A stretch of DNA of 62,787 nt from a virus, in IMG/VR virus record IMGVR_UViG_3300035672_000002, positions 1 through 62,787 of that record; one strand, written 5' to 3'. A model generated the notes under the pieces. It was not told the origin of the DNA. It ran no database searches and saw only the letters and a list, made by a program, of their open reading frames with translations. The translations under genes and the position numbers were made by a program. Within the stretch, counting starts at the first letter, position 1. The number at the start of each line of letters is the position of its first letter. This document shows, piece after piece, positions 10,948 to 39,933 of the stretch.

Positions 10948-11358
10948 TCACACAATCGCTCCTGATACTCCGATACTGTGCTTGAGTCTCAGTTCTCGTT
11001 CGACCTTCCAGCGGAAAGACATAGGAGTCTGACGTAGCTCAATAATCAGGTCACGGTCTGCTGTCCAATCTCGTGTGTTTAGGGACGTGTTGATCTGTTG
11101 AGTTCTTATGCTCCACGAGACGAGCATGATGATCCCTCGAAACCACACAAAAAACTTAGGTTCCCTGAAGCCGGTGACGGCATACACACCTAGCCGATCG
11201 CTGTCTTCGAGGCCATCAGCAAACGTCCACACTCGATCACATAGATGGATATAATCCTTCAATGTCAACTCTATCCCATAGCGTTCCTTACATCGCTTCA
11301 TGGCATGGTTCCGCTGTCGAATACGGAGGCCGGCTCTAGTTCGCCTAATCTTTATCAT
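10948..11358 (-). CDS. Hypothetical protein coupled to DNA polymerase
   Basis: 136 residues; ATG 11358 overlaps the polymerase stop as ATGA. A basic N-terminus (IKIRRTRAGLRIRQRNHAMKRCKERYG) is followed by a domain with aromatic beta-strands (PKFFVWFRGIIMLVSWSIR). Proteins beginning 'RxNHAMKRCxERYGxxLT' accompany replication genes in other phages. A DNA-binding or polymerase accessory role fits the location, but this is inference. Confidence 0.65.
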   Translation of the reverse strand: MIKIRRTRAGLRIRQRNHAMKRCKERYGIELTLKDYIHLCDRVWTFADGLEDSDRLGVYAVTGFREPKFFVWFRGIIMLVSWSIRTQQINTSLNTRDWTADRDLIIELRQTPMSFRWKVERELRLKHSIGVSGAIV

Positions 11359-14345
11359 TTACACTCTGACCATCTTTTTGCAGTCTTCCACTCCGCCAGA
11401 ATCGGCACCTTCAACTTCATCACTCCCGTCATCGCCTCCACAATCCTCTTTGCTAACCGTTCCTCCCCTCCCACCTTCACCTGGCTGACAACTTCGTCAT
11501 GCACCGTCAGTAGAGGATCACAGTCCCACCCGCTCTTCCGCACCTCCGGATAGACTTCGTCCATCAGCACCGGACACGACATCCGCATGATCTCCGCCGC
11601 CGTACCCTGCACCGGAGCATTGACCGCCATCCGTTCCGCTTCCATCCTCACGCCGTCAAGATCACTATGGACCCCCGGCAGATACCGTCTCCACCCCATT
11701 AGCGTTTCAACGTACCCGTACCTCCGTGCCTTCGAACACTGCTCGTCCATGAAGTCTTCGATCCCCGGATACGCGACCTTGAGGTACGCGTCGATATACG
11801 TCTGTGTCTCCTCTACTGTGACTTCAATCCCTTCGAGGCGCAACTCAGCCCTCAACCTCATGGCACCTCCGCCGTACAGGATGAGGAACGTGATCCTTTT
11901 CGCGATCGTCCTCTGCTTCTTCGTCACGCGCTCGATCGTCGTCCTGAAGATGTGTGACGCGGTAATAATGTGGACGTCGACTCCCGACTTGATGCCGGCG
12001 ATCAGGTTCTTGTCTCCACAGAGATGCGCCATCACCCGCACTTCGATCTGCGAGAGGTCTACTGATACGAGCGAATAACCATCAGGTGCAGCGAAGGCGC
12101 CGCGGACCAGCATCCCGAGGTCAGAACGTGCTGGGCAGTTGCCGGTCACCATCGTCTTCCCGTTCCGACGTACTAGCAGATATGAGGATGGAACGGAGCA
12201 GCAATACACCTTCCCCCGTTCACTCTCTTCTACCTTCCGATTCGTTGTCAGCGAATAATTCCGGTGCGTTACATCCACCTGCCAACTGATGGATCCTCCA
12301 CCCGATACGTACTTTCGTACGTTCGCCCGCACTCCACTGAGCGTGAACAGCGTAGCGATCACGTCTGCATTATGCTTATGCTTAGATGCGTAGTGATTCT
12401 TACGTGTCCAGCACCCGTCCCAGAACATCACTTCTGCGAGGATCACATCGATCTGCCCGCGCGACAAAGCTAAAAAGAAGCTCCAGTTGAAGAGTTTCTG
12501 CGGACCTAGAACGGCGTACTGGCGTTTCGTGATTACACCGGCTTGGATGTAAAAACGTGAAGCCCCTCCGATTCGCAGCGTCTCGCGATGAGGCACGTTG
12601 CAGGATGCTAGCAGTGCTCGGAAACGCTCAATCTTCCGCAGTTTCTTGGATGTGAAGTCAGCTCGTTGATTTGACGCCCAACTACCATCGGCCTGCATCG
12701 CCACCAGAAGTCGGAGTTCATCATCAGACCACGGCACCCCATCCCCGCCTGCGTAATTTCCTGCGTTCAGCTGTCGCCAATCCTCGGGATAGTCCTGTGC
12801 ATCGATTACACGCCGTTCACCCGTCTTCCGGTGCTCGATCAGGCAGCGATGAGTCGGGGTTACTTGGAGGTCAATGTGCTCACTGTGGATACGGATGAGA
12901 TTATCAGTCTTCCTCACGTAGTCCGTGGGAACAACGAATTCTACGACTCCGTCTTCGCGCCATTGCGCGACGTGAATTTCTCTACTGAGTTCATCGAAGC
13001 GTGTCCACCCTTCGTACGTCAACACCTCAGTATCGCCCGAAAAGCAGTTCTGAAGATTCGGGTTAGCCGAAGACAGTCGGTTGGTTTCTGTCCTAGTGGA
13101 CTTGAACGTCGTGTGTATTCTGCTGTTCTTGTCGACCATGCGTGGCAACGCGAGCGTGTACGTCCCTCGCAACTTCATCCTCTCTCTGTGGTCCGTGATG
13201 TTCCCTAGGATCGTCAGTGCCCGTCTCGTGCGCTTCGAGTCCTCCATCGCGGCCACTTGCAGCTTCAGATCCTCTAACACCTTGTCCTGTGTACTCGCGT
13301 CACCCGTCTTCGTCTCTTTGACGATCGGGAGATTGAGTTCATCGAACAGTAGCTCCGCAACCTGCTTCGGGCTCGCAGGGTTGACGTAGTGTCCGACTGT
13401 CTGTTGCAGTTGGTAGAGGATCTGATCGCACTCTACCTCTAACCGCGCATCTAGCTTCCTTGCGTACGGCACATCGAAGTACGTCCCGACTTCCATCATC
13501 CGGACAAGCAGGGGGATGGTGTCGCGGTCGATCTCGTAGATCCGTGTCAGCCCTTCTGCTTCGAGTTGCTGTTTCAGTATAGGATATATCCGCATAGTTC
13601 CGTCTGCATCCTCTGCGGAATAGGTAACTGCCGCGGACTGCGGTACAACGTCGTCCAGTGTCACCTCAGGCATCGGACCGATGGCGTCCTCGATCTTCAC
13701 CCGGTAGTCGTAGTCGACCTGTTTCATCCACCACGCACGCAGACCCGTAGCTTTACGATCTTCCCCGGCTGACGCTTCATTTTCTACTGTGTCGTCGTCA
13801 ACATCTTCCTCGTTTGACGCATCGTCAACATGTTGGCTATCCTTAGTATAGGTAGTAGAGGTTACGACTAGCCGGCGTAGAGCAGTACGGACCCGCGTCC
13901 CGATCTTCTGGCCGCGTCTGACCTTCACTTCCCCGTTGACATACTCCAGATACTCGTCAGGTGGTGGCCACGACGTACCGTCGCCATCGCACTCGTCACA
14001 CGTCACCGGCCGCGGAGACAGACGCACACCGCGCGCCCCGATGGGCTCTACGATCATCGATCCGTCTCCGCTACATGCAGAGCACTTGAAGGTCAGGATG
14101 CGTCGCAGGTAGTCAGCGGCGAGCTGACGATCGGCCTCCCGTGTGACCTCGACGTACGACTGACGCTTCCGTCCGTTGTAGCGACGTTCGAGCGGTTTGA
14201 GACCCTGTGGGATGAGACGGAGGACGTACGACATGACCATCGTGTCCTCGAAGGTGATCCGACTCATCAGCTCTTCGGACGTGACGTCGAAGAGTTCTGC
14301 AAGGATGGGGATATCGTGGGCAGCGTTATGGAGAATAATATGCAC
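11355..14345 (-). CDS. Family A DNA polymerase (partial 3'-5' exonuclease plus polymerase domain) with intein
   Basis: 996 residues from GTG 14345. Residues 1-270 are an exonuclease domain that starts at Exo motif II (LHNAAHDIPIL, N7/D11) and includes Exo III (YSAEDADG, Y242/D246); Exo motif I is missing and is found instead at the end of the gene at 15093-15941. The exonuclease domain holds an inserted zinc-ribbon-like CSAC...CDECDGDG and an acidic stretch. After the intein (434-736), the polymerase motifs are intact: A (SVDLSQIE, D763), B (RTIAKRITFLILYG, R812/K816/Y824) and C (LTVHDEV, H949/D950/E951). An upstream in-frame stop near 14360 makes GTG 14345 the earliest likely start. It should replicate the phage genome, perhaps with the exonuclease completed in trans. 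Confidence 0.9.
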   Translation of the reverse strand: MHIILHNAAHDIPILAELFDVTSEELMSRITFEDTMVMSYVLRLIPQGLKPLERRYNGRKRQSYVEVTREADRQLAADYLRRILTFKCSACSGDGSMIVEPIGARGVRLSPRPVTCDECDGDGTSWPPPDEYLEYVNGEVKVRRGQKIGTRVRTALRRLVVTSTTYTKDSQHVDDASNEEDVDDDTVENEASAGEDRKATGLRAWWMKQVDYDYRVKIEDAIGPMPEVTLDDVVPQSAAVTYSAEDADGTMRIYPILKQQLEAEGLTRIYEIDRDTIPLLVRMMEVGTYFDVPYARKLDARLEVECDQILYQLQQTVGHYVNPASPKQVAELLFDELNLPIVKETKTGDASTQDKVLEDLKLQVAAMEDSKRTRRALTILGNITDHRERMKLRGTYTLALPRMVDKNSRIHTTFKSTRTETNRLSSANPNLQNCFSGDTEVLTYEGWTRFDELSREIHVAQWREDGVVEFVVPTDYVRKTDNLIRIHSEHIDLQVTPTHRCLIEHRKTGERRVIDAQDYPEDWRQLNAGNYAGGDGVPWSDDELRLLVAMQADGSWASNQRADFTSKKLRKIERFRALLASCNVPHRETLRIGGASRFYIQAGVITKRQYAVLGPQKLFNWSFFLALSRGQIDVILAEVMFWDGCWTRKNHYASKHKHNADVIATLFTLSGVRANVRKYVSGGGSISWQVDVTHRNYSLTTNRKVEESERGKVYCCSVPSSYLLVRRNGKTMVTGNCPARSDLGMLVRGAFAAPDGYSLVSVDLSQIEVRVMAHLCGDKNLIAGIKSGVDVHIITASHIFRTTIERVTKKQRTIAKRITFLILYGGGAMRLRAELRLEGIEVTVEETQTYIDAYLKVAYPGIEDFMDEQCSKARRYGYVETLMGWRRYLPGVHSDLDGVRMEAERMAVNAPVQGTAAEIMRMSCPVLMDEVYPEVRKSGWDCDPLLTVHDEVVSQVKVGGEERLAKRIVEAMTGVMKLKVPILAEWKTAKRWSECK
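12138..13046 (-). other. Intein with LAGLIDADG-like homing endonuclease, inside DNA polymerase
   Basis: Residues 434-736 of the polymerase interrupt the conserved 'RLSSANPNLQN-(I)PARS' stretch. The insert begins CFSGDTEVLTYEGW (block A, Cys1), has TPTHRCLI (block B, T-x-x-H), and ends MVTGN followed by Cys+1 of the extein. The penultimate residue is Gly where His is usual. Between the splicing blocks, LLVAMQADGSW and ILAEVMFWDGCW are spaced like the two LAGLIDADG (DOD) helices of a homing endonuclease, with one acidic residue each. Excision would restore PNLQN-CPARS next to the polymerase active site. Confidence 0.9.
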
Positions 14346-14363
14346 GGAATTAATTCTCTACAA

Positions 14364-14897
14364 CTACTGGAGAAGTTCCGATCTTACCTGCGTCAGTAGT
14401 TGCCCGAGTACATTCTGCCCTTTACCCCGGAACATTCCCCAATAGACATCTCCCCAATAATTCCCTTCGATCATAATGGTTCCGTCAGTGGCAGTCAGTA
14501 ATCCTTTGTAAGGATGATCGCGGAACTTCAATCGCAGTAACTCCAGCATTACGCTTCTTTTGATCTGATCCCAATCAGGCCGGATCGTTAGACGACGGCC
14601 CATGCGTTTCGCGTCGCCCGGTGTACGGCAAGCCTGTATTAGGGCTGCTTCTCTATCGCTCAGCGTCTTTGCTGCTTGATATGCATGCTCCACTGTGGGA
14701 TAGATATTGCCCTCATAGGCGATTGACACGGGGGCGAAGTTTGAAAGCCATCGGTACTCGCGTGAGATATCGATGAAGTAGTTCAGCGCATGATCGCGGA
14801 CACTGAGATAGATTCTAAACTCAGTAGCAGTGTCCTTAATCCCTACAGTGAGTTGAGCCTCACTATTACTGTACGTAAATAGAGTTACTGTACTCAT
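14364..14897 (-). CDS. NADAR family (YbiA-like) ADP-ribose hydrolase
   Basis: 177 residues; ATG 14897 overlaps the upstream stop as ATGA. After a ~45-residue extension, the NADAR pattern is complete: RWLSNFAPVSI, YPTVEHAYQAAKTLSD, PGDAKRMGRRL, WDQIKRSVMLELLRLKF, LLTATDGTIMIEGNYWGDVYWG and GKGQNVLGQLLTQVR. NADAR proteins remove ADP-ribose groups, including from DNA modified by DarT-type toxins, so a phage copy may protect phage DNA from a host ADP-ribosylation defence or recycle NAD. It lies between the two halves of the polymerase exonuclease domain. Confidence 0.85.
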   Translation of the reverse strand: MSTVTLFTYSNSEAQLTVGIKDTATEFRIYLSVRDHALNYFIDISREYRWLSNFAPVSIAYEGNIYPTVEHAYQAAKTLSDREAALIQACRTPGDAKRMGRRLTIRPDWDQIKRSVMLELLRLKFRDHPYKGLLTATDGTIMIEGNYWGDVYWGMFRGKGQNVLGQLLTQVRSELLQ

Positions 14898-15100
14898 CGG
14901 AACAGTTGCTCCTTCATCCCCACTGCCACCTTCAGTACTCGTTTCTGCCTTTTGAAGCAGCGCCAGTGCTCGAGTTCTTCTTCAGGTGGTTTCACATCGA
15001 AAGGCCCACCGTTCGGCTGATAGTAGTGAATTTTCTCGCTATAGCCGATGAATCGTCCACAGATCTCACAACGTAGGGGTTTAGTCTTCCGTTTAGCCAT
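14894..15100 (-). CDS. Small putative zinc-binding protein
   Basis: 68 residues, ATG 15100, overlapping the upstream gene by 8 bases. CEICGRFIGYS and, 30 residues on, HWRCF give a C-x2-C ... H-x2-C zinc-binding pattern. The last residues GMKEQLF mirror the SMKEQLL end of the upstream glycosylase gene; the matching DNA (14900-14917 and 15102-15119) carries an AAGGA upstream of the next ATG in both cases. It sits in the insertion between the polymerase halves. Function unknown. Confidence 0.65.
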   Translation of the reverse strand: MAKRKTKPLRCEICGRFIGYSEKIHYYQPNGGPFDVKPPEEELEHWRCFKRQKRVLKVAVGMKEQLFR

Positions 15101-15941
15101 TCAGTAGTTGTTCCTTCATCGACTGTATCGTCCGCTTGTTCGTCTTCCTCACGACTCCAGCACTCCCTGCGAACTGACTGAATGACAACCCCCACACCCT
15201 CCCCGCCAGTCCTTCAGTATCAACAGCCACCGGGAGACTCTTCACCAGTTTGATACTGCTACGCGGTTCATAATAGTCAGGATCAGGATAGATGTCTCGC
15301 GGGGTGACGCACGGCAACGTTCCACGGACGTACTTCCCGAGCGTCATGAAGTCTGAGTAGATTACTGGTTGTTGCTCTGGACTGTGGAGGCCGGCTGCCG
15401 GATGATAGCAAGGCACGCACGTGAAATGCGCTATACGAACCAAGGACTCGGTCCTGACGTCGGCGAGTAGGCGTGATGGACCCTCTCCACGCCCTCGATC
15501 CAACGCCCGCCAGTTCGCCGTGGCATATGGGAAACCGTGGCACGATTCCATGTCCGTAAAAATACTGCGACCAAGCAACCAACGAGAAGCCACAGCACCC
15601 ACCCCGACGATGAACGTCGGACGAACTCTTTCAATCTCACCTATCAGCTCTCCCTCGTCCCGCTTGATGCCCGCAGCGGTCGGTTTCACGTTCCCACTCT
15701 TCGCTCTCGTCGTCGGCCGATGCTTCACCAGATTCGTCAGCCAGCAGTCTCGGAGTTCGATCCCCGCCTGCCGTGCGTATCTCGTGAGTTCCTTCCCGGC
15801 CTTCCCGACCCAACATTTCCGCATCTGCTCTTCCTGCACTCCGGGTGCCTCGCCGACGAACATGACGTCAGCATCAGGACGTCCGCGGCCTGGAACGTAG
15901 GGTCCGAGTGGAGCCGGAGATGTAGACGACTTCAACGTCAA
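15093..15941 (-). CDS. Uracil-DNA glycosylase fused to exonuclease motif I of the DNA polymerase
   Basis: 282 residues from TTG 15941 (TTGA overlap with the upstream stop, GGAG 8 bases upstream). Residues ~20-205 form a family 4/5-type uracil-DNA glycosylase: motif A VMFVGEAPGVQEE (28-38), WLTNLVKHRP, and motif C CYHPAAGLH (H180). The C-terminal 50 residues are not part of that fold: KSLPVAVDTEGLAGRVWGLSFSQ carries D241-T-E243, the Exo I motif of a DnaQ/family A exonuclease, and the gene stops just where Exo II would follow. It appears to be the N-terminal piece of a glycosylase-exonuclease-polymerase protein that has been interrupted. Confidence 0.8.
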   Translation of the reverse strand: MTLKSSTSPAPLGPYVPGRGRPDADVMFVGEAPGVQEEQMRKCWVGKAGKELTRYARQAGIELRDCWLTNLVKHRPTTRAKSGNVKPTAAGIKRDEGELIGEIERVRPTFIVGVGAVASRWLLGRSIFTDMESCHGFPYATANWRALDRGRGEGPSRLLADVRTESLVRIAHFTCVPCYHPAAGLHSPEQQPVIYSDFMTLGKYVRGTLPCVTPRDIYPDPDYYEPRSSIKLVKSLPVAVDTEGLAGRVWGLSFSQFAGSAGVVRKTNKRTIQSMKEQLLNG

Positions 15942-16611: not shown

Positions 16612-17529
16612 CTACCTCCGTCTCTCTCTGATCTGTTTAAACAATGTCTCCGCCACTTTCTCCCCCACTCCGTCCTTCTTTCCCCTCCCACTCGCCTTCA
16701 TCCTCAACTCCTCTACTGTAGCATGAACCATATCCTCGATGCTACTGAATTTCGTACTCGCGTTGGCCGCCCGGTCATATCCCATGCCGTCGAAGATATT
16801 GGCGAACATCATCCGCCTCTTCCGGGCCTCGCTCATGAACCCCACACCGCGTCTGCCTTTTTCGTGCAACGCAGTATTGAAGAGTTGCATCGACTTATGC
16901 GCCTCAAACTTCTTGTCCGTCCAGAACCGATACTGACTGACGATCCACTGCGCCGTCTCATCAGGTGTCTTCGTATTCCAGACGAACAGCGGCTTCCCGT
17001 ACTTGTAGATCGAGCCCGCTTGCAGCGATGTCAGCCACTTCATGACCGTTGCGTACGTCACCGTCCGGGACGATCCGTAGAGCGCCGGGACGAACCGGCC
17101 GTCAGAAGTCACAGCGGTAGCAGCGCCAGCGGCGGTCCCTCCTCTGGTCTTCGATCGTCTTTTCGCCGCCCCTCGCTGGAACCTCGCAGACTGCAACCGC
17201 TTCATCAGTATCCCCGAATCGTGGTCCGGCCGCAGCTCGTCTTCCACCACGAGCCACGACAGGTCGTAGTCGCGGTGCATCCCCTCAAGTTGCCCGTCGA
17301 GCCCCGCCAGCCGGCCGTCATCCATGCAGGCGAGTACGTCCCCGACACGTTTGACCTCGATCCCGATCCGCAGAGCAGAACCGTTCGGCCCGTTCCCGAT
17401 GATGAGGATGTCTCCGTGGTCGAGACGTTGATCGACGACGAGCGACGATGGTACGAGGTAGCGTCGGAGGAGCGAACCGAGGTCACCGGAGTGTCCGGGA
17501 CCGTGCTGCGTGTCGACGAAGAGCGTCAC
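16612..17529 (-). CDS. ERCC4-type nuclease with helix-hairpin-helix end
   Basis: 305 residues from GTG 17529 (GTGA overlap). The N-terminal ~110 residues match an ERCC4/XPF nuclease core: VVDQRLDHGDILIIG (D33, G39-D40), IGIEVKRVGDVLACMDDGRLAG (E58, K60, D64), then a Gln/Met helix and YDLSWLVVEDEL. A basic linker (~115-140) follows. The C-terminal part contains FDGMGYDRAAN...SIEDMVHATVEEL and GVGEKVAETLFKQI, typical of helix-hairpin-helix DNA-binding units. It likely cleaves branched or flap DNA during recombination-dependent replication. Confidence 0.75.
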   Translation of the reverse strand: MTLFVDTQHGPGHSGDLGSLLRRYLVPSSLVVDQRLDHGDILIIGNGPNGSALRIGIEVKRVGDVLACMDDGRLAGLDGQLEGMHRDYDLSWLVVEDELRPDHDSGILMKRLQSARFQRGAAKRRSKTRGGTAAGAATAVTSDGRFVPALYGSSRTVTYATVMKWLTSLQAGSIYKYGKPLFVWNTKTPDETAQWIVSQYRFWTDKKFEAHKSMQLFNTALHEKGRRGVGFMSEARKRRMMFANIFDGMGYDRAANASTKFSSIEDMVHATVEELRMKASGRGKKDGVGEKVAETLFKQIRERRR

Positions 17530-39625: not shown

Positions 39626-39933
39626 GGGGGCGTACTGGTTTCGACGGAATAGTACGACCTCGATTAGCACGCCGGTAAGGAGCGACCGCAACAGCCCAAA
39701 AACGCACAAACGCCAACACTGATAATGTCGTGTACGCGAACTTCGGCGAGGGTGTCTCCGACGCCCCGACCCAGATGAGCGAACCCACTCCGTGGGCGCC
39801 CATGGCAATCGCAGCATAAGTAGTTCTCACTTTCCGCCCAACAGCAGACAGCCACTGCGCAAAGGGTAAGCGTGTAAAGCAGATCGAGGAAGTCTAGTTT
39901 CGGACGCGGGTTCGACTCCCGCCGCCTCCACCA
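39626..39933 (+). ncRNA. ssrA: tmRNA (transfer-messenger RNA) with 35-codon tag
   Basis: 5' end GGGGGCGTACTGGTTTCGAC (39626-39645) and 3' end with T-arm GCGGGTTCGACTCCCGC, acceptor strand CGCCTCC and encoded ACCA (ends 39933). The acceptor pairs GGGGGCG/CGCCTCC (one G-U). The tag frame begins at GCC 39712, 87 bases from the 5' end, close to the usual resume site. It begins ANTDNVVYA, ends PWAPMAIAA and stops at TAA 39817-39819, giving 35 codons against 8-15 in most bacteria. The RNA would rescue stalled ribosomes and tag proteins for degradation; the terminal -AA fits ClpXP-type recognition. A -10-like TATACT lies about 30 bases upstream. Confidence 0.93.

What the first reader, a model, noticed from the sequence alone, without database searches (positions are those of the whole stretch)
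11355..15941. DNA polymerase split inside its proofreading domain, with the first half fused to a uracil-DNA glycosylase
Seen: the gene at 15093-15941 ends with a VAVDTEG segment (Exo motif I, D241/E243) after a complete uracil-DNA glycosylase, and stops where Exo motif II should follow. The gene at 11355-14345 starts right at Exo II (LHNAAHDIPIL) and has Exo III and polymerase motifs A, B and C but no Exo I. Two genes lie in between. Known: family A exonucleases need motif I for catalysis. Inference: a single glycosylase-exonuclease-polymerase gene was interrupted. The halves may assemble into one active exonuclease, proofreading may be lost, or the RNA or protein may be joined by an unknown step.
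Basis: partly seen in the sequence, partly recalled or inferred. Interest (0 to 1): 0.9.

Follow-up and report, generated by a model that had tools for sequence, protein, structure and literature searches.

The report
Phage DNA polymerase gene cut in two
In this virus of bacteria, the gene for a three-part DNA-copying enzyme was cut inside its proofreading part by two foreign genes; nothing of the enzyme was lost, so its proofreading centre probably has to be built from two separate proteins, one of which is also a uracil-removing repair enzyme.

Summary
A type-4-like uracil-DNA glycosylase (UDG) gene carrying Exo motif I (15941-15093) and a family A polymerase gene starting at Exo motif II (14345-11355) are two parts of one ancestral UDG-Exo-Pol gene. 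At least 85 related phage loci keep UDG and exonuclease in one ORF, and three of them (L014-L016) align across the window's break without a gap. Joining residue 282, one serine codon upstream of the GTG, and polymerase residue 1 restores the full length, so nothing was lost. The 747-base insert holds a 68-aa CxxC ORF and a NADAR gene, and is among the most AT-rich stretches of the contig. It lies in the loop between an exonuclease helix and the Exo II strand. No intron was found, ORFs fill the insert, and TAG is an ordinary stop. The same gene family is interrupted in 23 other contigs at several sites, including four phages split between Exo II and Exo III. Exo residues are kept almost everywhere. 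Most likely the halves assemble non-covalently into a working exonuclease, as shown for split phage 25 gp43 and Aeh1 NrdA; decay of proofreading is the main rival. This is a new variant of known insertional gene fission.

The parts
15093..15941 (-). UDG plus N-terminal part of the 3'-5' exonuclease (strands 1-3, helix A); Exo I D241/E243 (codons about 15221-15213); TTG start, TAA stop
   Evidence: Pfam UDG E 8e-21; family profile 43-280 E 4e-60; alignment A3
14349..15095 (-). 747-base insert between the codon of G282 and the serine codon TCC; in-frame length; 48.9% GC against a contig mean of 56.9%
   Evidence: gapless junction in A3; GC scan, 0.08% of windows as low
14894..15100 (-). 68-aa CxxC (zinc-ribbon-like) ORF; start overlaps the end of the UDG gene by 8 bases
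   Evidence: no confident relative found
14364..14897 (-). NADAR gene (putative ADP-ribose-guanine hydrolase, likely anti-DarT); ATGA overlap with the 68-aa ORF
   Evidence: Pfam NADAR E 2e-22; about 50% identity to phage NADARs
11355..14345 (-). Family A DNA polymerase beginning at the Exo II strand; Exo II D11, Exo III Y242/D246, polymerase motifs A, B, C; GTG start
   Evidence: Pfam DNA_pol_A E 4e-99; profile 284-881; positions
12138..13046 (-). Intein (303 aa) in cis at PNLQN/C, with LAGLIDADG-like region; same site used in L002 and L003
13983..14084 (-). CxxC...CxxC insert in the exonuclease domain between Exo II and Exo III
   Evidence: weak DnaJ CXXCXGXG match E 0.02
15106..15119 (-). 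ATGAAGGAACAACT: Shine-Dalgarno-containing repeat ahead of the 68-aa ORF, inside the UDG gene's end
14904..14917 (-). ATGAAGGAGCAACT: second and only other copy in the contig, ahead of the NADAR gene
16612..17529 (-). ERCC4-like nuclease gene, found near the UDG-Exo-Pol gene in 57 related loci (synteny marker)

Best explanation
A single UDG-Exo-Pol (family A) gene was cut by insertion of a foreign two-gene cassette (68-aa CxxC protein plus NADAR) into the loop between exonuclease helix A and the Exo II strand. Shown: the split, the absence of lost sequence, the ORF-filled insert of foreign composition, intact homologues, and conservation of every catalytic residue on both pieces. Inferred: the pieces are translated separately from one message (overlapping or near-abutting start and stop codons), and the tail of the glycosylase supplies strands 1-3 and the metal ligands D241/E243, which pack against the Exo II/III half in the polymerase. 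The result would be a non-covalent UDG-exonuclease-polymerase complex with proofreading.
For: Uninterrupted homologues align with no gap at the joined junction. A non-circular profile covers 43-280 and 284-881. Exo I D/E 150 of 150, Exo II D 146 of 150, Exo III Y/D 150 of 150, window included. The Exo I tail is about as conserved to its clade (18-45% identity) as the rest of the protein. The insert is AT-rich and absent from relatives. Nearest clade (support 99) holds intact genes and three genes split between Exo II and Exo III; a fourth came from an independent helicase search. Other cuts of the same gene are filled by HNH, Dam or DNA-methylase genes. A model of both halves tethered by the read-through insert gives high confidence on both exonuclease pieces (pLDDT about 92-97 and 91-96) with the break in a loop. 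Precedents: split gp43A/43B of phage 25 co-purify with activity and split NrdA of Aeh1 is functional (PMC2988022).
Against: Assembly and exonuclease activity are not shown. The model relies on an alignment of fused homologues, and the polymerase half alone is predicted equally well, so the fold is compatible with assembly but does not demand it. The window is a single contig with no close relative, so maintenance of the split over time cannot be measured. The polymerase start is a GTG with a weak ribosome-binding site. In the four Exo II/III-split relatives a -1 frameshift that joins the ORFs is not excluded.
Confidence: 0.62

Rival explanations
1. The insertion disabled proofreading: the polymerase works without its exonuclease, and the Exo I tail on the glycosylase is a remnant of a recent event that has not yet decayed.
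For: The insert is compositionally foreign, as expected if recent; no other member has this exact break; family A polymerases can polymerise without exonuclease (general knowledge).
Against: All catalytic residues and the full tail are kept; the window stands on a long branch (1.07 changes per column), although the insertion could be late on it; four relatives keep a split exonuclease with all residues.
Confidence: 0.28
2. The message or the protein is rejoined (intron, trans-splicing, intein or programmed read-through), restoring one polypeptide.
For: The insert length is a multiple of three (747) and UDG, NADAR and polymerase share one frame; removal at G282/S would be exact.
Against: No group I or II intron in Rfam even at E 10; two coding ORFs fill almost the whole insert; no intein motifs at the break; seven in-frame stops; TAG ends 15 of 65 genes. 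A multiple of three occurs one time in three by chance.
Confidence: 0.05
3. Assembly chimera or a defective genome in the metagenome.
For: Single metagenomic contig, no read data, no near relative.
Against: Gene edges at both junctions overlap or abut coherently with ribosome-binding sites; nothing is lost at the break; the same gene is interrupted in many independent contigs.
Confidence: 0.05

Closest known systems
Insertional gene fission by homing endonucleases in T4-like phages: Aeh1 nrdA with mobE, T4 gene 60 with mobA, Aeromonas phage 25 genes 43A/43B (PMC2988022)
   Same: Essential replication gene cut by inserted DNA; pieces retained; assembly shown for NrdA and gp43
   Different: Family A UDG fusion instead of NrdA or a family B polymerase; the cargo is a NADAR and a CxxC ORF, not a homing endonuclease; the cut parts Exo I from Exo II/III
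Split family A DNA polymerase of OM43 phages MEP401/MEP402 (PMC10580990)
   Same: Family A polymerase gene divided by a small inserted ORF of unknown function; kept in most group I genomes
   Different: Cut within the polymerase domain; no UDG reported; the inserted ORF is unrelated to known proteins
UDG-fused family A phage polymerases (SPO1-like; phiLo polymerase, PDB 9qhs; phrog_17)
   Same: Same domain order; 9qhs residues 9-110 match the window's UDG weakly (E 0.002)
   Different: One uninterrupted polypeptide

Membership tests
UDG-Exo-Pol family A phage polymerase | UDG domain upstream of the exonuclease and polymerase | tested here: met
   Profile coverage 43-881 over two ORFs; Pfam UDG and DNA_pol_A
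UDG-Exo-Pol family A phage polymerase | Exo I, II and III residues and polymerase motifs A, B, C | tested here: met
UDG-Exo-Pol family A phage polymerase | All on one polypeptide | tested here: not met
   Two ORFs separated by 747 bases
Insertional gene fission (genes in pieces) | Intact homologue exists and the pieces together cover it without loss | tested here: met
   L014, L015, L016 gapless junction
Insertional gene fission (genes in pieces) | Intervening DNA is an independent gene of foreign origin, not an intron | tested here: met
   NADAR and 68-aa ORF, low GC, no intron, absent from relatives
Insertional gene fission (genes in pieces) | Inserted gene is a homing endonuclease (the mobE/mobA type) | tested here: not met
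   No endonuclease in the insert; relative L220 does carry an HNH gene
Insertional gene fission (genes in pieces) | Pieces assemble into an active enzyme | not testable with these tools
   Model compatible, but the control is equally confident
Group I or II intron | Ribozyme core in the intervening DNA | tested here: not met
   Rfam, no hit

The most novel reading that the evidence does not exclude
A replicative polymerase whose proofreading active site is shared between two separately made chains, one of them a uracil-DNA glycosylase, in a phage lineage whose polymerase gene is repeatedly used as a landing place for cargo genes (anti-ADP-ribosylation, methylases, HNH), so that proofreading depends on assembly with the glycosylase chain and could be tuned by it.
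Probability: 0.3. Interest if true: 0.72.

Novelty: new variant of a known kind. Interest (0 to 1): 0.52.

Why it matters
It extends genes-in-pieces from homing endonucleases to ordinary cargo genes and puts the break between the catalytic motifs of a proofreading exonuclease. The family offers natural two-chain versions of one enzyme, cut at several different sites beside intact sisters. That makes it possible to ask which breaks a polymerase tolerates, and whether a split exonuclease still proofreads.

Tried and rejected
Group I or II intron: rejected (ORFs fill the insert). Recoded TAG: rejected. A natural fragment without Exo I: rejected. Close relatives by direct protein search: none; the genome-contig scan returned only host-type polA. 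Relatives of the 68-aa ORF: none. Foldseek against PDB recovered the UDG and polymerase parts but could not judge the two-part exonuclease, because the tether disrupts the alignment. The polymerase-half-alone fold shows that the predicted confidence does not discriminate. The repeats CAACTACTGA and CAGTAGTTG near both junctions were considered as splice or transposon ends; QLL-coding chance at two of the sites explains part of this, and no mechanism is claimed.

Full report
What is there. The window is a complete IMG/VR virus record. On the minus strand, a TTG-started gene (15941-15093, 282 aa) carries a UDG domain followed by Exo motif I (VAVDTEG, D241/E243) and 38 further residues. A GTG-started gene (14345-11355, 996 aa) begins at the strand of Exo motif II (HNAAHD) and carries Exo III and polymerase motifs A, B and C, interrupted by a cis intein (434-736). 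Between them lie a 68-aa ORF with a CxxC motif and a NADAR gene. Inference: the NADAR gene could counter DarT-type DNA ADP-ribosylation, as NADAR proteins reverse it (PMC11125620).

Is it one gene cut in two? UDG-family A polymerase fusions exist in GenBank phages. Profile searches of IMG/VR brought in many more. In 85 loci the UDG and exonuclease are in one ORF. Three of these, L014-L016, align with the joined window proteins without a gap at the break if the serine codon before the GTG is counted. A profile built without the window finds the two ORFs at positions 43-280 and 284-881 and no other Exo I. ERCC4-like nuclease, Sak4 and helicase genes are shared with related loci. So nothing was lost; 747 bases were added.

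What was added. The insert has 48.9% GC against a contig mean of 56.9%; only 0.08% of same-size windows are as low. Its two genes have no homologue in the related loci. Their starts sit behind two copies of ATGAAGGA(A/G)CAACT, which occurs nowhere else in the contig. They overlap the neighbouring gene ends (8 bases and ATGA). No ribozyme was found, and TAG is an ordinary stop (15 of 65 listed ORFs). UDG, NADAR and polymerase share a reading frame; this can be chance.

The family context. A family-profile scan of 166 sequences (the window and 165 loci) gave 148 single-ORF cases and 18 interrupted ones, the window included. A second sample, drawn by helicase similarity, gave 43 single and 7 interrupted, one of these from a contig already seen. 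Breaks lie inside the UDG (L220, by an HNH gene), between UDG and exonuclease, between exonuclease and polymerase, and inside the polymerase part (L241, L248). Dam and DNA-methylase genes fill the gaps in L218 and L241. In four phages (L176, L178, L179, L258) the break lies between Exo II and Exo III, with overlapping ORFs and a start codon at the same place. A -1 frameshift is not excluded there, because the NTG is partly forced by a conserved tryptophan codon in the first frame. On a quick tree, interruption changed state at least 8 times, and the window falls in a supported clade with both intact and split members. Exo residues are present in 150 of 150 (Exo I D, E), 146 of 150 (Exo II D) and 150 of 150 (Exo III Y, D).

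How it most likely works. The break falls between helix A and the Exo II strand. A model of the read-through frame, with stops read as glycine only to tether the halves, places both exonuclease pieces with high confidence and leaves the insert disordered. The polymerase half alone is predicted equally well, so this is compatibility, not proof. With the experimental precedents of split gp43 and NrdA (PMC2988022), non-covalent assembly is the favoured reading, and loss of proofreading the main rival.

Novelty. Gene fission by insertion is known, and a split family A polymerase with a small inserted ORF has been described (PMC10580990). No description of a fission between Exo I and Exo II, or of a NADAR cassette in a polymerase gene, was found in the papers searched, a limited library. 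I rate it a new variant of a known kind.

Noticed in passing
39626-39933 (+): A tmRNA gene (Rfam 99.5 bits) in a phage contig, with a predicted tag peptide that does not end in the usual ALAA-like motif.
   Followed up: no
12138-13046 (-): 303-aa intein at PNLQN/C of a family A polymerase; L002 and L003 carry inteins at the same site although their polymerases are distant.
   Followed up: partly
13983-14084 (-): CxxC...CxxC insertion between Exo II and Exo III of the polymerase, absent from the three aligned intact homologues L014-L016.
   Followed up: partly
L176:4911-7405, L178:4929-7423, L179:1918-4331, L258:8608-11069: Four related phages with the exonuclease split between Exo II and Exo III by overlapping ORFs; two proteins or a -1 frameshift.
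   Followed up: partly
L220:5306-5698: HNH endonuclease gene inserted inside the UDG domain of a UDG-Exo-Pol gene whose near relative L188 is intact: a before/after pair.
   Followed up: partly
15106-15119 and 14904-14917 (-): Near-identical 14-base Shine-Dalgarno-containing motif ahead of both inserted genes, found nowhere else in the contig; may reflect how the cassette was built.
   Followed up: partly
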